A stretch of 64,000 nucleotides of DNA from an uncultured Candidatus Saccharibacteria bacterium. Its GTDB lineage: Bacteria > Patescibacteriota > Saccharimonadia > Saccharimonadales > Saccharimonadaceae. The translations under genes and the position numbers were made by a program. The notes under the pieces were generated by a model. It was not told the origin of the DNA. It saw only the letters and a program-made list of their open reading frames with translations, and did not search any database. This document shows, one piece after another, positions 9,008 to 19,390 of the stretch. How positions within the stretch are numbered: the stretch's first letter is position 1; each line of letters begins with the position of its first letter. The DNA lies in contig CAMVEA010000001.1 of the NCBI GenBank assembly GCA_947166405.1, positions 1 through 64,000 on the forward strand, read 5' to 3'.

Positions 9008-10348
9008 ATGCAAGAAAACAAGAAAAATCTCATCTACGCATCCATCATCATTACACTTATCGCCACTCTCGGCATCATCTGGTTCTTCCTTATCCAGGCC
9101 ATCAGTCCCACCACTAACCAAATCAGCAACGCCACAACACCCCAGTCCACCACCTCCGCCTCCTATTCTGCCGCCAAGACAATCACCGAATACGCAACTA
9201 TCGAAAGCGGTGAGTTCACCTCCACCAACTCCGACGAAAATGCCATCAATGTCTCCGGCAATATCACCGCGAATCTATCAAATATCACCGTAACAAAAAC
9301 CGGCGACAGTGACGGTGGCGACAGTACCAGTTTTTACGGCACCAATTCCGCCATCATCGCAAAGGATGGCGCAACCCTAAGTATCACAAACGCCAACATC
9401 ACCACCAACGCCACCGGCGCCAACGGCGTCTTTAGCTACGGCGGTTCCGCCACTACTAACAACAGTAGTTCCGACGGCACTACAGTCAATATCTCAGACT
9501 CCACCATCGAAACTACTAAGGATAATTCCGGCGGCATTATGACTACGGGCGGCGGTGTTATGAACGCAAATAATCTTACCATCACCACCGCCGGCACCTC
9601 TAGCGCCGCCATCCGCTCCGATCGCGGCGGTGGCACCGTCACCGTTGATGAAGGTACCTATAAAACCACCGGCAAAGGCTCCCCAGCCATCTACTCCACT
9701 GCCGATATTACCGTAAAAAATGCTAACCTCATCGCTACCGCTTCTGAAGGTGTCGTCATCGAAGGTAAAAACAGTGTCACTTTAGAAAACACCAAATTAA
9801 CCGACACCAACAATACCTTAAACGGTCAATCCACTACATACAAAAACATTTTTCTCTACCAGTCCATGTCTGGCGACGCCGCCGACGGCGAGGCCACCTT
9901 CACTGCCAGAGACTCAAACATCACCACAAATCAAGGCGACACTTTCTATGTCACTAACACTACTGCCACCATTAATCTCGAAAATAATCAGATTATGAAT
10001 AATGACCAAACCGGCAACTTCCTCCGCATCCAAAAAGATTCTTGGGGCAAATCCGGCAGTAACGGCGGCACTGTTGCCCTAAACCTTACCAATCAAAAAG
10101 CCTCCGGCAATATCGTCGTCGACTCAATTTCCAGTCTCACAATGAACTTAACGAATAGTTCGACCTTCAACGGTGCCATTAATTCCGACAATCAAGGCGA
10201 GGTTAACCTCACTCTCGACACCTCCAGTTCTCTCACCCTTACCGCCGACACTTACCTCACTTCCCTAAATAACGTAGACTCAACAAACTCAAATATTAAT
10301 CTAAACGGTCACAAACTCTTTGTAAACGGCGTCGAGTTCACCAAATAA
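9008..10348 (+). CDS. Membrane-anchored putative beta-helix adhesin-like surface protein
   Basis: In-frame ATG at 9008 (MQENKKNLIYASIIITLIATLGIIWFFLIQA...) just after the stop of the preceding gene; repeated N/T/S-rich short beta-strand pattern (NITANLSNITVTKTG, LSITNANITTN...). The tracked start at 8693 lies in the wrong frame of the preceding gene. Confidence 0.75.
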   Translation: MQENKKNLIYASIIITLIATLGIIWFFLIQAISPTTNQISNATTPQSTTSASYSAAKTITEYATIESGEFTSTNSDENAINVSGNITANLSNITVTKTGDSDGGDSTSFYGTNSAIIAKDGATLSITNANITTNATGANGVFSYGGSATTNNSSSDGTTVNISDSTIETTKDNSGGIMTTGGGVMNANNLTITTAGTSSAAIRSDRGGGTVTVDEGTYKTTGKGSPAIYSTADITVKNANLIATASEGVVIEGKNSVTLENTKLTDTNNTLNGQSTTYKNIFLYQSMSGDAADGEATFTARDSNITTNQGDTFYVTNTTATINLENNQIMNNDQTGNFLRIQKDSWGKSGSNGGTVALNLTNQKASGNIVVDSISSLTMNLTNSSTFNGAINSDNQGEVNLTLDTSSSLTLTADTYLTSLNNVDSTNSNINLNGHKLFVNGVEFTK

Positions 10349-10401: not shown

Positions 10402-11142
10402 TTATATCTTCTTCCGCATCTTCCTTACTAAATCTTTTGTTTCCTCATCCACCCGATATGAATCACAAATCTTCGAAATCGTTTTATTAAACGTCCATAC
10501 CGGTAACTTAGAACCCACCATATATCCAGTCATCGCCGTCGGATATTTAATAAAGCAGTCACACAAAAGCCACGCAATCGCCATCCGGATATAGTACTCT
10601 TCTCGTTCCGCCAAGCCTTCTACTCGGTCAAAAATCACATTCAGCCACTCCGGTTCAATATAAGCAATCTTCAAAAGCACTAACCCCACTCTCACCGCAA
10701 ATTCTCCCGAATCATTTGAAAGCAACCCATCAACTTTCGTTTCGAAAAACTCAGTCCGTTTCTTCCGAATCTTCTTCGCCACACCCGAACAAAATATATC
10801 GCAAGTACACCAATTATCGATATAAGAAATCTGCGAATCAAACCACGACCCGCCATGAAGACGCTCACGCGGAGCCACCATTTCTTCATACGACAACCGA
10901 CCAATCAGCATCCCCCGCGCCAGCACTTCCTCAATCGCCACCGGCTCTGCCGTCAAAATCTCCTCAACCTTCTCTCGAGGCACCTCTGCCACAATCTTCC
11001 GAATCTGTGGAATCCGCACGCCAATAAACGGTCTCTCGCTCGGAATCCCCTTCATCGAAAATTCTCGATACTCATCATCCGCCAGCTCCGCCAATCGCCG
11101 CCTCAGCTCCCTATAGTCGCACACTTCACTCATACCCCCCAT
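10402..11142 (-). CDS. DNA alkylation repair protein (AlkD-like HEAT-repeat glycosylase family)
   Basis: 246 aa; KGIPSERPFIGVRIPQIRKIV...YIDNWCTCDIFCSGVAKKIRKKRTEF...YYIRMAIAWLLCDCFIKYP matches the AlkD-like family pattern. Confidence 0.85.
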   Translation of the reverse strand: MGGMSEVCDYRELRRRLAELADDEYREFSMKGIPSERPFIGVRIPQIRKIVAEVPREKVEEILTAEPVAIEEVLARGMLIGRLSYEEMVAPRERLHGGSWFDSQISYIDNWCTCDIFCSGVAKKIRKKRTEFFETKVDGLLSNDSGEFAVRVGLVLLKIAYIEPEWLNVIFDRVEGLAEREEYYIRMAIAWLLCDCFIKYPTAMTGYMVGSKLPVWTFNKTISKICDSYRVDEETKDLVRKMRKKI

Positions 11143-11203
11143 TATACCCCAAATACGCTATATATAATATATAGTGTATTTTTTCGATTTAAACTATCTT
11201 ATG

Positions 11204-14071
11204 CTAGAACAACCTTCCACTTTCTCCAACATCAGTGTTTCTAAGCTCCACATACTCCAACATATCTCTTACGCTCGCATTTCGCTTCCGCCAATCATAG
11301 AACATCTTATCGGGCAGCATCGCATAGTGCCAAGTTATCCCCTCTCGCTTATCCGCCTCTAACGCATTAATCTTCTCCACCCATCGCACCGCCGCGCGTT
11401 TCTTCCTCACCACATTCGGTTGCGACAACTGATTTTGCGCCTTCGTCTCCACCAAATAGCAATCATCCCCCAGTCTCACCACGAAATCCGGAATGTACTC
11501 CGCAGGCATCCCATCGTCACGAATATACCTAAATCGCGCAAAAGTATGTCGATTCTCAATAATCTTACAAAACGCATTCACTTCTCCATCTCGATCGCAA
11601 AATTCCATAAAATCCCGCTCATAAATTCCCTTATTACTTGGATACGGACATTTCGCATAAATACATTTTACCGGCTCTATTGCATACTTCTCTCGCACCG
11701 TAATCTTATCTATACTCGAAAACGCCGTGAACACCACCTTCGTCTCACCCACCGTCTCTACTTCTTCTTGCGCTTTCAAAATCTGCGTCACAAGTTGTCC
11801 TTTAATATGATTCATCACATCATCGATTAATAATACCTTCCAGTTCTTCCCCTCCGCTGGATTCACTTCCTGTCTAAACAATCTATGTCGTATATATTTA
11901 TCAATCGCCCCAGCAATTTCTACATTATCTATCATCAGCCCAGGATATCCACCCGCATTCTTGTTTCGCCCTAGTTTGTCCAAAGGTGCATTCAGCTTTT
12001 CTACAATATGGTTAGTCAACCTGCCAATATAGTCATTGTACGAAGACGAGCGAAATACGCCAGTCGTCACTTCATAAAAACCAGCATTCACGCCATTCTC
12101 CACATTTTTATCAATCCAAGTCTCGCGATCCGGTATCATTCTGATTAGTGATTCATACGGTACTCGAAAAGGCTCCAGCTTCTCGATATCAATCTTTATC
12201 TTTTTCATCTGTTTTGCGGCTTCGTCTATTACTAATGGCAACCTAAAATCATATTCTTCATAGTTTTCTTTCAGCCCCACTGTCTCCAAATCACCTTTCA
12301 CTACTGGTTCATTATTAGTATCGCCTTCTTCCCCCATCAAGCCTTCGCTAATCAAATCATCATAAAACGCTCTAAACGCAGGGTGCTCCACAATCGATAG
12401 TACATCAAAATAATTCTCTGCAGCTCTATGTTCCTGCATCGCCCGCCGGTTTTCCGCCTTCAACTCATCTATCTCTGGATTTCCTCTCCACATTAATCGA
12501 AGCCCTCGCCCTATCGTCTGCTCTAGCAAAATTCCCGACTGAGTACTCCTTAGTGGCACAATCACGCACACGTTATTTACGTCAAATCCTTCTCTCAGCA
12601 TCAGCACCGAAATCACCACACGCGGCTTTGTATGCTTATCCAGCGAGAACAACTTATGTCGAATTTCTTCCCATTCCTTTTCGCCGACTTCACCCTTCTT
12701 GTTACTATGAATCTCTAGATAGTCATCCTGGTCTAGCCCTTCCAAATACAAAAAATTCGATACTAGCGGCACCACACTCGTATCTTCACACATAATTAAC
12801 ATCTTCGGTTTCTTAGTCTCATCTACTTTAGCAAACTCATCTTCTAGCAACTTCAGCTTCGCGAGCCCAGCTCGTATCATCTGCCTCTGCCCTTCCGACA
12901 GTCCAACCACTTCACCAGCCGCATTTCTCTCCGCCCTAAAATCCAGCGCCTCTACCGCCAGCTCTTTCCTCTCCGACAACCACAGCATCTTCACAAGCCC
13001 TCTTCGGATTGCCTCCTTCAACTCAAAATCCACTATAATATGCGGGAAATAAATCTTATTCTTTCCCTTCTGATTATACGGCGTTGCCGAAAAATCCACC
13101 TGTATCGCTCGCTTACCTTTACCCACCGCAATATAGCGGAGCGCCTTCTGCCATTCTACCTCGTCCTTCTCGCCGCCCTTCACATTATCATGAATATGGT
13201 GCGCCTCATCATTAATCATCATAAGATCCGGCAACCGATGCAAGAATTCCAACTCTTTCTTGCCATTCAATGAATTATCCAACGAATCCAAACTATTCCC
13301 CGCCGCCACACCAGGCGACACCGGTAGCCTCCATCCATCTTCTATTCCAGGCTCGTCCTCGACTTGTTCTTCCGCTCCCATCAATAGATGTTGATTCGTA
13401 ATTGCAATCAATCCATCCCCGGTCACCTTACTTCCAATCTCTTTTTTCGCCGCCACACTACTTTGCAAGAATCCATAAAACTCACTTCTATACTCTTCCG
13501 GCAAAAACAAATCTTCCTGCGTCTTAATATCGCAAGTCTCAAAGTCTCGCCCCTCGCCATCTTCACGGCTTTTGCCTAGAAACGCATCAAGCAGCCTCTC
13601 ATATACAATTATCCCCGGCGCAATAATCAAGAAATTCTTAGTAAAGTTTCCTACTTCCTCATGCTTAGCATTTAAATACTGCCAGATTACCAGCGCCTCA
13701 AACACCCAAGTCTTCCCCGTCCCAGTCGCCATCTTCACGCAATACTTCGGTATGCTATAAATATCTTCGTGGAGTTGCTCAATTCCAAACCCTTTAGCCA
13801 ATAGTAAATTCGGTGCCAAATCCACATACACATCCCCAATCTTCTCTTTCTTCAAAACTTCATGAATATATATAATGTTGAGAATCGCCTGCCGCTGCCC
13901 AATATGAAAGTTCACTTCCCGCATATCCGCATACGCCTCGTCAAACCAATAAGTTAGCAAACTCCGCGTCGTCGGAGTTACGCTGTCCATAAAACTTCCA
14001 TCTTCCCACGCCGCATTCGCACGCTCCGTCACAATTTTCGCAAATTCTAGTGGTGCTATATTATTACTCAT
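11204..14071 (-). CDS. Type III restriction-modification system restriction subunit (Res)
   Basis: 955 aa; Walker [20 protein letters not shown], helicase motif TIGRGLRL; C-terminal nuclease-like segment [17 protein letters not shown]; overlaps the mod 3' end. Confidence 0.92.
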
Positions 14072-16061
14072 TTGAAACCTCCATAATCACTTCGCTTTCC
14101 AATCCAAATACATCTACCGCCCTCACAGCCACATATCCCGTCTCGCCAAGCGGCAAGGTTACTTTATTGATCACATGTAATGGATCGTCGTCGTTTTCCG
14201 TGTTGTTCCGATAATCTTGCCAAGTGCTATGGAAGAAATTCCCATCGTAATTCGGATCAACTGACCAGTATTCAATTAGCGCCAACGGATCCCTGGCAAT
14301 CACCTCATTCATCTTTTCCTTGTTCTTCGCATCAAGCGGCAAAGCATCCGCCGATAGTATCACATAATTATCTAACTCAATCGTAATCTGTCCGTCTTTA
14401 ATAATCGGATCTTTCAAAGTCAGATACTGCAAAGACGAAAATCTTACCGGCGTCTTCACCATCCCGTTCGCGTCCACCGCTACTTGACTGCTTAGTTTCT
14501 TATACGATGCCTTACTCTTCAATTGGTCTAACAAATCCGCTGGGATTATTTCTACCGTCAGCGTGCCATCTTTATACTCCCGCATCGTGTCTAAATATGC
14601 CCCGATATCACTTTTAAAATTCCACCCCAGCACCGTTACCTTATTCCATCCGCCCTGGAAGGTATTCATTTCATCAAGCGCTCGACTAATCGTATTTGGC
14701 GAGACCAATTCGGATGGCGACACGACATAGATTAGACGTTTCGTGTTTTTAATCCGCCCAAGATTATGGCTCGGGTTCTCTTCATCCCTGAATGGTATCG
14801 CGCCATATAGATTAAGTACGATTTGATTTAGCTCATAAATTCTAAACTTCGTACCAAAATTCGTCTTCATTTGTTCACGCTGATAATCACCGATTGATTG
14901 ATAGAAAAATTCTTTCGCATCATTGTCAATGAATCTTTTCCGCATAATCATCGTCGCTGGCTTACCAATATCCGAGGTAATCCATTTTCGTCCCAACTTC
15001 TCCGCCACCGCCGCCGTCGTTCCCGATCCACCAAAGAAATCTGCCACAACCGAGCCTTCGTTAGAACTTGCCTTGACAATTCGTTCTAATAACTTTTCAG
15101 GTTTTTGAGTAGCATACTTGACGCGCTCGTCAGCTTGTGGATTAATCACTGGAATTTCCCAAACATCGCCCATAGTAGTCGCCGTAACATTTGTATACGA
15201 AATTTTATCGTATTTAGAGAAGTCGACCTTTTTTCTAGCTTTTTCTTCATCGTACACTAATAGTTTTTTTATACCGTTATCGACAACGACATGATAACCC
15301 CGCTCATACCTATCGTTATTCCTTACTTCGTCAGGTATTGGATTATATACATTATCCTTACTCTTGGCATAAAACAACATTGAATCGTGCATATGAGGAA
15401 ATAGGTTACTACTTCTTCTAGAAAAACGATGATAACTCCAAATTACGTCATTTCTGAAATTCTCTTTACCAAAAATATCGTCCATTACTATTTTTAAATA
15501 ATGCCCCACATGCCAATCAATATGCACATAAATCGACCCTCTCTCGCTAAGTAGTTCCTTCATCAATACCAACCTCGGATACATATATTTCAGATACGCA
15601 ATCGTACCCTTGATTTCTTCGCCGTCTATTGTTGTGCTCCAAGTATCCGCGTATGCAAATTGTTCTAGCACTGTCGGTTTACTATCAATCGTCGCTCCAG
15701 GTAGTTCAATCTTCGTTCGATAATCCGCCTTACTATCATACGGCGGATCAATATATATCAAGTCAATTTGCCCCCGCATACTTGGTAACCCTGTCGCCGG
15801 GTCGCCCGCAAGTAGCGCCTGCATCACTAGCAAGTTATCGCCGTATACCAAGCGATTCGTCCAAGCCGGACTCACGTTATATCCCGCCGCCCCCAGCACC
15901 GCCGAACCCAAGTTTTTCTGTTTGCGGTTTTTATTCGGCTGTACCAGCTCATTAGTTTGTAATGTTATTCGCGACGCATTAGACAGCCCATCGAGGATAC
16001 GATTAGCTTCTTTGCGCCCTTCACTTACTACTTTCGGAAGTAGTTCAATAAGGCTGCTCAT
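14064..16061 (-). CDS. Type III restriction-modification system DNA methyltransferase (Mod)
   Basis: 665 aa; motif IV DPPY ([18 protein letters not shown]) and SAM motif ([15 protein letters not shown]). Confidence 0.92.
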
Positions 16062-16260
16062 AATGTAGGTTCCAATTACTTATGGTTTATAGTTTCTGGC
16101 AGTCGCAAGCTACTAAACGAAATGTAGCCCGCAATCTACCGGTTGGAACCTACAATCTACTGCATTTCTACAGAAAACCATAGCCGATAATTACGAGCTA
16201 CATTTTATCTTCTGTAAAAACGCAGTATTAAAATGCTTTAATTATAAATTGTAGGTTCCA
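16062..16260 (-). promoter_or_regulatory. Structured upstream/leader region of the mod-res operon with three copies of TGGAACCTACA in alternating orientation
   Basis: gtaggttcca at 16065-16074 and 16251-16260; inverse ttggaacctac at 16143-16153; extra stems CTGCATTTCTACAGAA (16160-16175)/TTCTGTAAAAACGCAG (16210-16225) and GCAAGCTAC (16105-16113)/GTAGCCCGC (16124-16132). Confidence 0.6.
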
Positions 16261-16320
16261 CTTTTATTATACCTCATTTCTACTATTTATTCAATGAAGC
16301 ATAAGCATAATACAATATTA

Positions 16321-16349
16321 TTGCAATTTGTCAAATATAGTGCTACAAT
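16321..16349 (+). promoter_or_regulatory. Sigma-70-like promoter for the DUF4417 cassette
   Basis: TTGCAA (16321-16326), 17 bp spacer, TACAAT (16344-16349). Confidence 0.55.
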
Positions 16350-16480
16350 GGAATTGTCCTTTAGGATGAGAAGGACATGGGAGTGTGGGATGTAAAGGTG
16401 AGCCAACTTGTTCGATACATTCTACATTCTTACAAAACAATCATCTATTCCATAATAAGCTAACAAAAAGGAGGTTAATA

Positions 16481-16513
16481 TTGATAAAACATGAAGAAAA
16501 AAGATGTGCCTAA
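16481..16513 (+). CDS. Candidate 10-aa leader peptide (MIKHEEKRCA, TTG start)
   Basis: Strong SD AAAGGAGGT at 16467-16475 followed at 6 nt by TTG ATA AAA CAT GAA GAA AAA AGA TGT GCC TAA; downstream inverted repeats suggest attenuation. Confidence 0.35.
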   Translation: MIKHEEKRCA

Positions 16514-16641
16514 TCACCGCTAAATGACAATAGACACATCACACATAAAAAGCTTGGTTGCTTTTTAGTACTTTTATGATACATTATCGAAGCTAAAATT
16601 GCAACTTTAAGCGGTTATTAGATTAAAGAAAGGAATTATAA

Positions 16642-17283
16642 ATGAAACGTAAATTTAACCGCTTCAGCCAAAAATACCTCGCAGGCGCGGAGTTGATTGG
16701 ACTCGAGCAATATCCAAAATTACAATCAACGCAATTCATCCCAGAAAATGTCATTAGTTTTAATGAAAGGAGTCGAGTAAAAAATCCGAGTAATTATTGT
16801 CTAGACCACTTTATCTACGATTATTTCTTCGAACAAGTTTGGAATAATTGCGATAGATTTATAGAAATATATCGAAAATTTAAAATTATAATCACGACTG
16901 ATTTTTCCGCCTATCGTGATGCTCCACTTTGGGAGCGAAAATACAATGTAGGCAGAAATCGCGCAATCGCTTATTATCTTCAGAAAAACGGTATAAACAT
17001 TATACCGGTAGCCTCTTGGGCGTATATGGAAGATTTCGAATGGTGTCTAGATGGATTACCGAAACATGCTTCTATTGCAATCTCAACAAACGGTTGCATG
17101 AAAAATTTCATTAGCCATTCTGTATTGATTGACGGAATTGCCGAACTTCAAGAAATACTAGAGCCGAAATATTTAATCATTTGCGGCAGTAAACTGCCAG
17201 AAATAGAAAAACTTTACGATAATTTATTTTACTATGATAACTTTTCACAAAGAATGGCAAGGAGGATCAAAAATGGGAAGTAG
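16642..17283 (+). CDS. DUF4417-like domain protein
   Basis: 213 aa with RBS AAAGAAAGGA; ITTDFSAYRDAPLWERKYNVGRNRAIAYYLQKNGINIIPVASWAYMEDFEWCLDGLPK...ISTNGCM resembles DUF4417 proteins common on mobile elements and phages. Confidence 0.7.
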   Translation: MKRKFNRFSQKYLAGAELIGLEQYPKLQSTQFIPENVISFNERSRVKNPSNYCLDHFIYDYFFEQVWNNCDRFIEIYRKFKIIITTDFSAYRDAPLWERKYNVGRNRAIAYYLQKNGINIIPVASWAYMEDFEWCLDGLPKHASIAISTNGCMKNFISHSVLIDGIAELQEILEPKYLIICGSKLPEIEKLYDNLFYYDNFSQRMARRIKNGK

Positions 17284-17668
17284 CGGAGCATTTCTAAAAT
17301 CAGGTGGGTTTACGGAGCAAAAATGGCGAGAGGTTGGCACTTTTCATGGAATAAAAATCCTTGTCAGGAAAAACAATGGCGAAAAACCAAGTCTTCCTTT
17401 TTACTCCAATACTCCAGGAACTGGATATTTGCTTCTTAATAAAGATGGGACTTTTAAACAATTTCGCCAATTCGGCGAGAACAGAAAGCCATTATTTGAT
17501 CTCGATTTAGGAAAACATGGTAAACAGATTAGTCTGCACATTCACAATTACGCAAATAATAATAGAAACAGCGACAATCCAATAGTTATTGCAATTAAAG
17601 GAAAAGGTATAGTCAATAAAAAGTTGTATAATAAATTCAAACCGTTGTTAAAAGGAGTAAAATTATGA
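17273..17668 (+). CDS. Hypothetical protein, possible small toxin-like domain
   Basis: In-frame ATG at 17273 with SD AAGGAGG, overlapping the upstream gene; FRQFGENRKPLFDLDLGKHGKQISLHIHNYANN. Confidence 0.55.
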   Translation: MGSSGAFLKSGGFTEQKWREVGTFHGIKILVRKNNGEKPSLPFYSNTPGTGYLLLNKDGTFKQFRQFGENRKPLFDLDLGKHGKQISLHIHNYANNNRNSDNPIVIAIKGKGIVNKKLYNKFKPLLKGVKL

Positions 17669-17943
17669 CTAATAATTGGAACAAGAATAAAAAGGAGTAT
17701 TTAGAAGCCCTAAAAAGAAAAGGCGAAATTGAGTTTAATTACAATAATCATTATTATCATATCGAATCAGCAGATTACAAAAGCGATGATTTTAACATCT
17801 GGATGTTTACATCTTTTGAAAGTGATGACGGCAAAATCATTGCACGATGCAAAAATCCAGCAGAGGTTTTAAGAATGAAAGTATTCGACGGTAAATCACT
17901 TGAAGAAATTGAGGACCAGATGACTGATTGCTATATTCTTTAA
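17665..17943 (+). CDS. Small hypothetical protein, possible partner of the upstream gene
   Basis: 92 aa, 4-bp ATGA overlap with the upstream gene, SD AAAAGGAG. Confidence 0.6.
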   Translation: MTNNWNKNKKEYLEALKRKGEIEFNYNNHYYHIESADYKSDDFNIWMFTSFESDDGKIIARCKNPAEVLRMKVFDGKSLEEIEDQMTDCYIL

Positions 17944-18069
17944 CACCCTTGTCTCAGTTTAAGCTTTTAATTATGGTCATTTTTCTCAAATATCGGTTAC
18001 GGCTAACATATCTGATAGTGCTTATTCGGGTAACACTTAGTTTTATCTAATGCGTATTATGTCCATAAT

Positions 18070-18366
18070 TTACCACACCACAATCCCCTTCCTAATCCTC
18101 ATTAGTAGAATCCGTCGCCGATTGTATCTTATTACCTTCATATGCTCCTTCGGGAGCATGCATCCCTTAGCCTCGTTGCATGCCTTGTGTGCCAGTTGAT
18201 AATTATCCATCGCATTCTTTCCGCCCTTCGCCAACGGCACAATATGATCTATTGTCAAATCATCCAAATCCTTAATCTTCCTCCCACAAATCGCACATCT
18301 CCGCCCATCTCGCCACAATAACTCCAACTTCGCCTTCGTCCTCGCCCGACTCCTCTTCGTTGTCAT
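18070..18366 (-). CDS. HNH endonuclease
   Basis: RRCAICGRKIKDLDDLTIDHIVPLAKGGKNAMDNYQLAHKACNEAKG. Confidence 0.9.
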   Translation of the reverse strand: MTTKRSRARTKAKLELLWRDGRRCAICGRKIKDLDDLTIDHIVPLAKGGKNAMDNYQLAHKACNEAKGCMLPKEHMKVIRYNRRRILLMRIRKGIVVW

Positions 18367-18415
18367 TTTACCTCCTTTATTATTCTTTTATGCCACTATC
18401 AATTATGTTCAAGTC

Positions 18416-19015
18416 TCAGCTCCTTATTCCGTAAATTGTGTCCCGTATTCTTCTCTTAACCACTTGTTCAGATACGTGAAATACTTGTCGCACCACAGTT
18501 AAGGCTCTAGTGTATTTCTCACCCCCTACCATATAATAATATCTCGCAAAACTCCCACCATACTCATTATTCAATACTCGCACCAATTCATCTTCTGGAG
18601 CAAGCAGACACCCAGCGAAAAAATTCGCCTGATATTCTACATAATTGCAACTATTGCTCACGGAGGCCCCGATCCATTCATTCAGACTTTCCACCCGACT
18701 CGAAAAGTATTCTCGGTGTAGAACAAAATGCCCTATTTCATGCGCAATGCTAAAACGATATCTATTGCTACAATGGCGAAACTCTGACTCATCTGCGTAA
18801 ATAGTCCTAAAATCCGCGGCCATAAACGCATCCACGCCAAATTTAGTCCATAATTCCATTACTGGCACAATTGCAATCCCCAAATAATCGCATATTGCCT
18901 CGACATTCATTGGATAACTCCCATTCCAACATTCTCCCAATACTTCATCGACTCTGTCCTCAATCTCTAATCTACCAATTCTTGGTATCTGGCATACAGC
19001 ATTTAAATCTCTCAT
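18416..19015 (-). CDS. ImmA/IrrE family metallo-endopeptidase
   Basis: HEIGH zinc motif in RFSIAHEIGHFVLHREYF; paired with an HTH regulator. Confidence 0.88.
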   Translation of the reverse strand: MRDLNAVCQIPRIGRLEIEDRVDEVLGECWNGSYPMNVEAICDYLGIAIVPVMELWTKFGVDAFMAADFRTIYADESEFRHCSNRYRFSIAHEIGHFVLHREYFSSRVESLNEWIGASVSNSCNYVEYQANFFAGCLLAPEDELVRVLNNEYGGSFARYYYMVGGEKYTRALTVVRQVFHVSEQVVKRRIRDTIYGIRS

Positions 19016-19018
19016 TCT

Positions 19019-19390
19019 CTATTCTTCCTCCCCATCATTCCGAACTTGCGAAAGTAGTGCATTTAACTCATCTTCGTCCAAGTTTTGTTGCCTTAGTGTG
19101 CGATAGAAAGCTGGCAGTATTTTTGCTACTCGCTCATTATCATGTAGATCCTCCGGTAATTCATTCTTTGCAATTGCTGCAAGATCCATAAAATTCCACC
19201 ACTCGTCAGACCCTCTAGCAATCCCAAGCACGGCAGCTAGTTTTGTGAGCTTCTCCTTATCCTTAGGTGGCAATACTATCCCATTCTCAAGCCTAGAAAT
19301 ATACGCTACATCCAACCCTGATAATCTTGCAAACTCCCGCACGCTGCCAATCGCCATACGCCTCTTTTTGAATAGTTCATGGAACTTCAT
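19019..19390 (-). CDS. XRE-family helix-turn-helix transcriptional regulator
   Basis: SVREFARLSGLDVAYISRLENGIVLPPKDKEKLTKLAAVLGI. Confidence 0.88.
   Translation of the reverse strand: MKFHELFKKRRMAIGSVREFARLSGLDVAYISRLENGIVLPPKDKEKLTKLAAVLGIARGSDEWWNFMDLAAIAKNELPEDLHDNERVAKILPAFYRTLRQQNLDEDELNALLSQVRNDGEEE

What the first reader, a model, noticed from the sequence alone, without database searches (positions are those of the whole stretch)
16062..16260. Alternating inverted repeats and mutually exclusive stems upstream of the type III mod gene
Three copies of TGGAACCTACA occur in alternating orientation (16064-16074, 16144-16154, 16250-16260), the last ending right at the mod start codon. Between them are CTGCGTTTTTACAGAA/TTCTGTAGAAATGCAG and GCGGGCUAC/GUAGCUUGC (with G-U pairs). 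AAAUGUAGCUCG can also pair with CGGGCUACAUUU, giving competing folds. Two hypotheses: an RNA leader switch controlling mod-res, or an invertible DNA segment (13-bp perfect IRs at 16144-16156 and 16248-16260 flanking about 91 bp) acting as a phase switch. Phase-variable mod genes are well known, but usually through simple repeats.
Basis: partly seen in the sequence, partly recalled or inferred. Interest (0 to 1): 0.7.

Follow-up and report, generated by a model that had tools for sequence, protein, structure and literature searches.

The report
Two-way RNA switch before restriction genes
The repeats are the arms of a conserved RNA leader that can fold in two competing ways, one ending in a transcription stop signal; it sits in front of several unrelated DNA-defence operons, and two surface-sugar operons, of tiny epibiotic Saccharibacteria, and it matches no catalogued RNA family.

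Summary
On the minus strand a promoter (-10 TATAAT) is followed 5 nt later by a ~200-nt leader ending at the mod start codon. Two covariance models found 22 homologous leaders in 21 Saccharibacteria genomes (two genera); Rfam has no match. Twenty precede restriction/defence genes of unrelated families (two type III mod/res families, Eco57I-type and EcoRI-type methylase loci, a DEAD/ResIII helicase); two precede sugar-transferase/glycan operons.

Two competing folds are conserved. Fold A pairs the 5'-terminal GGAACC arm with the middle arm (a long rod). Fold B is a 12-17 bp helix followed by a U-run, an intrinsic-terminator architecture, whose arms differ between subtypes yet stay paired. A third arm before the ATG can pair with the middle arm and cover the start region.

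Best reading: a promoter-linked RNA attenuator; rod A = read-through, B = termination, start-codon occlusion as an optional second lock. Trigger, polarity and activity in cells are untested. In the window's own clade the U-run is degenerate, so the translational lock may matter more there.

The parts
16266..16294 (-). Promoter: -35 TTGAAT (16294-16289), 17-nt spacer, -10 TATAAT (16271-16266)
   Evidence: TATAAT or TAAAAT lies 5-6 nt before the 5' arm in 22 of 22 homologous leaders. Transcription start not measured.
16244..16260 (-). Element 1: predicted 5' end of the transcript and 5' arm of fold A (UGGAACCUACAAUUUAU)
   Evidence: DNA homology with the nearest relative (L080) begins exactly at 16260
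16210..16226 (-). 5' arm of the inner rod of fold A (CUGCGUUUUUACAGAAG)
16194..16205 (-). 5' arm of fold B (terminator helix T), AAAUGUAGCUCG
16159..16174 (-). 3' arm of the inner rod of fold A (UUCUGUAGAAAUGCAG)
16144..16160 (-). Element 2: middle arm (GUAGAUUGUAGGUUCCA); pairs with element 1 (fold A), with element 3, or partly inside fold B
   Evidence: GGUUCCA invariant in all 22
16120..16131 (-). 3' arm of fold B (terminator helix T), CGGGCUACAUUU
   Evidence: followed by an uninterrupted U-run in 19 of 22 leaders, degenerate here
16115..16122 (-). U-rich tail of the terminator (UUUCGUUU), degenerate in the window's clade
16105..16132 (-).
   Evidence: sequence of this hairpin varies in the other leaders
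16064..16074 (-). Element 3: UGGAACCUACA just before the start codon; can pair with element 2 and cover the start region
   Evidence: the flanking motif ACATAAGAGTAATTGG of the other leaders occurs exactly 13 times in 45 genomes, all at leaders
14064..16061 (-). mod, type III DNA methyltransferase (665 aa)
   Evidence: PF01555 E 6e-47; PADLOC MTase_III E 4e-70
11204..14071 (-). res, type III restriction subunit (955 aa); overlaps the end of mod
   Evidence: PF04851 E 2e-14; PADLOC REase_III E 8e-31

Best explanation
The feature is the 5' leader of the mod-res mRNA and a member of an apparently undescribed family of bistable RNA attenuators in Saccharibacteria. Transcription starts at element 1. 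As RNA polymerase proceeds, element 1 and the segments after it zip up with element 2 into a long rod (fold A). If the rod forms, polymerase reads through and the start codon is open: ON. If the rod is prevented or undone, the middle segment instead makes fold B, a 12-17 bp helix followed by a U-run, which should end transcription; in leaky transcripts element 2 can pair with element 3 and hide the start codon: OFF. Shown here: homology, shared architecture, fixed promoter position, covariation of folds A and B, near-balanced predicted energies, diversity of downstream genes. Inferred: that B terminates transcription, that A is the ON state, that element 3 blocks translation, and that an unidentified signal tips the balance.
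For: Homologs: models R1 and R2 find 22 leaders in 21 of 394 family genomes; R2, built without the window's clade, still finds the window (60 bits, E 9e-10). Covariation: helix T has 9 distinct arm pairs, 7 of 12 positions changed on both sides, no break at positions 2-12, and at least 7 two-sided changes on a tree built with the T arms masked; fold B covariation score 0.263 with 0/500 shuffles and far above all slid versions; fold A 0.176, 0/500. Promoter: -10 box 5-6 nt before element 1 in 22/22. Output: T directly followed by a U-run in 19/22. Balance: A minus B lies within about 6.5 kcal/mol except in the window (12.4); A and element 2:3 differ by -6.5 to +6.5 kcal/mol. Same leader before unrelated operons. 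The module shared with the nearest relative begins exactly at element 1.
Against: No expression data. In the window's own clade the U-run is degenerate and fold A is predicted 12 kcal/mol better than B, so termination may be weak there. Nested folding predicts fold A for nearly all leaders, so without a trigger the switch would mostly stay ON. Element 2:element 3 is nearly invariant and so has almost no covariation support, and 3 of 22 leaders lack element 3. T could instead form together with the rod as a pseudoknot, which the folding tools used here cannot score.
Confidence: 0.7

Rival explanations
1. Translational switch only: the competing helices work solely by opening or covering the mod start codon, and helix T does not terminate transcription.
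For: Element 3 abuts the start codon in 19 of 22 leaders, and the element 2:3 helix leaves the start region mostly paired (unpaired fraction 0.13 against 0.53 in the window). The U-run is degenerate in the window's clade.
Against: The U-run right after T is kept in 19 of 22 leaders, and three leaders keep promoter, rod, T and U-run but have no element 3 (L073, L074, L077).
Confidence: 0.12
2. Pseudoknotted aptamer: rod A and helix T form at the same time in one compact fold that binds a ligand or protein, i.e. a true riboswitch rather than two strictly exclusive folds.
For: Both helix sets are conserved in all members; the T loop length is nearly constant (62-67 nt); GGUUCCARCCG and GGUCUUAUAGUUUUUGC are conserved in sequence.
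Against: The conserved middle segment has a complete alternative set of partners inside fold B, which explains its conservation without a ligand.
Confidence: 0.1
3. Invertible DNA segment (phase switch) between the 13-bp inverted repeats.
For: Perfect 13-bp inverted repeats flank about 91 bp.
Against: All 22 homologous copies in 21 genomes have one orientation; the -10 box lies outside the repeats and would keep reading the gene in either orientation; repeat arms covary like RNA stems; classified neighbours are DUF4417, HTH, M78 peptidase and DNA-alkylation repair proteins, not recombinases.
Confidence: 0.02
4. Processive antitermination signal (RfaH/LoaP/UpxY style) for long defence and glycan operons.
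For: The controlled operons are long, and glycan operons are classical targets of such factors (established knowledge).
Against: No genome of genus g11 shows more than one NusG-domain gene (40 of 45 with one, 5 with none detected), so the paralogue that defines those systems was not found. A factor-free (put-like) variant is not excluded.
Confidence: 0.05

Closest known systems
Attenuator/riboswitch expression platforms (terminator versus antiterminator leaders)
   Same: 5' leader right at the promoter, competing folds, one an intrinsic-terminator architecture; optional start-codon occlusion
   Different: No known aptamer: no Rfam match; trigger unknown; found before restriction/defence and glycan operons rather than a metabolic pathway
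T-box leaders
   Same: Transcription attenuation by alternative folds
   Different: No T-box match in Rfam; not before aminoacyl-tRNA or amino-acid genes
RfaH/ops, LoaP, UpxY antitermination of glycan operons
   Same: Leader elements in front of long surface-polysaccharide operons
   Different: Here shared with restriction systems; at most one NusG-domain gene detected per genome
Known control of restriction-modification genes (C proteins, antisense RNA in EcoRI and Eco29kI, hairpin at a start site as in Cfr9I; review PMC12707154)
   Same: Limits expression of a restriction operon; hairpins over start codons are known
   Different: That review does not use the words attenuation, leader or riboswitch; here one RNA family is shared across unrelated restriction families
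Phase-variable type III mod genes (phasevarions)
   Same: Type III mod gene with repeats upstream
   Different: No evidence of inversion; the repeats act as RNA pairing arms

Membership tests
Transcription attenuator (leader with alternative terminator fold) | Terminator helix plus U-run between promoter and gene | tested here: met
   Helix T in 22/22, uninterrupted U-run directly after it in 19/22; in the window's clade the U-run is degenerate
Transcription attenuator (leader with alternative terminator fold) | A competing fold that precludes the terminator, supported by covariation | tested here: met
   Fold A 0.176, fold B 0.263, each 0/500 shuffles; co-existence as a pseudoknot is not excluded
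Transcription attenuator (leader with alternative terminator fold) | Regulated premature termination | not testable with these tools
   Needs RNA data
Riboswitch | Ligand-binding aptamer | not testable with these tools
   No Rfam match; binding needs an experiment
Invertible promoter/phase switch | Both orientations present | tested here: not met
   22/22 same orientation; reads of one population not available
Invertible promoter/phase switch | Site-specific recombinase nearby | tested here: inconclusive
   The six neighbouring window proteins scanned (10402-19390) are not recombinases; not every neighbour was scanned
RfaH/LoaP/UpxY antitermination | NusG paralogue in the genome | tested here: not met
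   At most one PF02357 gene in each of 45 genomes of genus g11; the window's own genus was not tested
Rfam families (release 15) | Match to a curated model | tested here: not met
   No hit to the leader in the window or in related loci

The most novel reading that the evidence does not exclude
The leader is a genuine sensor RNA (riboswitch-like) that reads an infection- or host-attachment-linked signal and sets both DNA restriction and surface glycan synthesis in epibiotic Saccharibacteria: one RNA class for two unrelated kinds of phage-facing functions.
Probability: 0.2. Interest if true: 0.88.

Novelty: new variant of a known kind. Interest (0 to 1): 0.63.

Why it matters
Restriction systems must be controlled, and the known means are control proteins, antisense RNA, promoter methylation and start-site hairpins. 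A single RNA leader family in front of several unrelated restriction/defence systems, and of glycan operons, would add RNA attenuation as a shared way to control them. It also gives a concrete regulatory element in Saccharibacteria, where regulation is largely unknown (PMC11665869), and the family alignment makes the switch directly testable by compensatory mutation.

Tried and rejected
Invertible segment: rejected on fixed orientation in 22 copies and on promoter position. Dispersed repeat/MITE: the own genome holds a single copy (other hits E 0.39 and 0.74). Phage or plasmid origin: no match in phage or plasmid records; 20 exact 16-mer hits in viral contigs contain no leader by R2; the 3' motif has no exact match there. 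NusG-paralogue antitermination: not supported. Trans-encoded antisense RNA: no second long match to the leader in the genome. Leader peptide: short reading frames in the window's leader are not kept in the other subtypes (reading of the alignments). Weak R1 hits L078 (E 3e-4, before a Fib_succ_major surface protein) and L079 (E 2e-3, before a gene I read as nusA from its sequence) show an outer stem plus a terminator-like stem, but lack the -10 at the fixed distance and are not found by R2: not counted. L105 (E 0.048) appears to lie in coding sequence and was taken as chance.

Full report
OBSERVATION. The minus strand, the strand of mod, folds much better than shuffled sequence (z -10.2 for 16142-16262, -8.8 for the whole leader) and better than the plus strand (z -6.6 and -4.3), partly because many pairs are G-U.

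ANATOMY. On the minus strand a sigma-70-type promoter (TTGAAT-17-TATAAT, 16294-16266) is followed 5 nt later by element 1 (16260). The leader runs ~199 nt to the mod ATG (16061). mod and res are type III restriction-modification genes and overlap by a few bases.

HOMOLOGS. DNA search, protein search and two covariance models gave a family of 22 leaders in 21 genomes, all in two of the 61 genera of the family that were sampled. A draw of 393 genomes of the class added none outside this family, and 240 genomes of the phylum none but the window's own. These searches drew samples and used strict filters, and R2 scores the window's own clade only modestly (60 bits), so absence elsewhere means absence of close relatives. 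R2, built from 14 leaders without the window's clade, recovered the window and its two relatives: a held-out test.

WHAT LIES DOWNSTREAM. Eight leaders precede the mod family of the window, seven a second type III mod family with another res, two an Eco57I-type methylase locus with a T5orf172-domain protein, one a DEAD/ResIII helicase in the same locus as one of these (L071), two an EcoRI-type methylase gene (one assigned by partial sequence only), and two a sugar-transferase/glycan operon. All five genomes of genus g11 with the window's mod family carry the leader before it. Homologous sugar-transferase genes in 16 other g11 genomes have no leader recognised by R2, so leader and gene come apart in evolution. 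With the nearest relative (G308/L080), DNA homology starts exactly at element 1; upstream sequence is unrelated apart from the -10 box.

FOLDS. Fold A (rod): element 1 with element 2, plus inner stems. Fold B: helix T, a short GUCGG/CCGRC stem, and a stem made from the conserved UCUUAUAGUUU with part of element 2; T is followed by a U-run in 19 of 22. T arms come in nine distinct versions, e.g. AAAUGUAGCUCG/CGGGCUACAUUU (window), GAUUGCAGCUCC/GGGGCUGCAAUU, AAUUCCAGCUCU/GGGGCUGGAAUU, AAUCGUACUCCU/AGGAGUACGAUU; positions 2-12 never break and seven positions change on both sides. On a tree built with the T arms masked there are at least seven two-sided changes. Pair counts: fold B, 8 pairs with changes on both sides, score 0.263 against 0.180 shuffled and at most 0.090 when slid; fold A, 9 pairs, 0.176 against 0.132 and at most 0.109. 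Limits of the controls: the shuffles ignore relatedness, the alignment is MAFFT's, and for fold A the number of covarying pairs itself is not above shuffles (288/500).

ENERGETICS. For cores ending at T, rod A and fold B lie within about 6.5 kcal/mol in all leaders tested except the window, where A leads by 12.4. Stepwise folding predicts that A forms as soon as element 2 is out and usually stays the minimum. For full leaders, A and the element 2:3 state differ by -6.5 to +6.5 kcal/mol. These are secondary-structure estimates without pseudoknots or kinetics.

MECHANISM. I read this as an attenuator: A = read-through, B = termination. Element 2:3 adds a translational lock where element 3 exists (19 of 22). 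Support for that lock is complementarity, position and a leader-specific flanking motif, not covariation. The trigger is unknown. Most genomes have a single leader, and two leaders serve no restriction gene, so control by the Mod protein is not a general explanation; an RNA-sensed metabolite or a general factor (polymerase speed, RNase, helicase) is more economical. This is inference.

KNOWN OR NEW. No Rfam family matches. Literature searches in the held library found no description of such a leader in Saccharibacteria, and a 2025 review of restriction-modification biology does not mention attenuation, leader or riboswitch; the library is incomplete. Rated a new variant of a known kind (RNA attenuator), with an unusual set of targets.

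Noticed in passing
L128-L130, L133, L135, L139, L140 (about 100-300 nt upstream of sugar-transferase genes): Glycan operons without the leader often have another short terminator-like stem just after the promoter, several with a G-rich motif (GGGWGGGAGGTAC ... GGTCGTTTTTTGTAC). Possibly a separate attenuator or antitermination signal.
   Followed up: no
L071:5837-6065 and 9333-9589: Two nearly identical leader cores 3.5 kb apart in one defence locus (G109), before two different genes; the sequences diverge right after the U-run.
   Followed up: partly
L077:1380-1796 (-): A 138-aa ORF with a CdiA C-terminal domain match lies between the leader and an EcoRI-type methylase gene.
   Followed up: no
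L078:6797-6978 and L079:6599-6780: Weak R1 hits with an outer stem and a terminator-like stem, before a large surface-repeat protein and before a gene that reads as nusA; not confirmed by R2.
   Followed up: partly
L072 and L075, start of the glycan operon: The start codon behind element 3 opens a 15-codon ORF before the sugar-transferase gene, similar in both genomes.
   Followed up: no
window ~15000-15500 (central mod): The central part of mod is only ~58-74% identical to the nearest relative while the flanks are >90%, as expected for exchange of the target-recognition domain.
   Followed up: no
window 16642-17283 (+): DUF4417 protein gene divergent from mod, followed by small ORFs.
   Followed up: no
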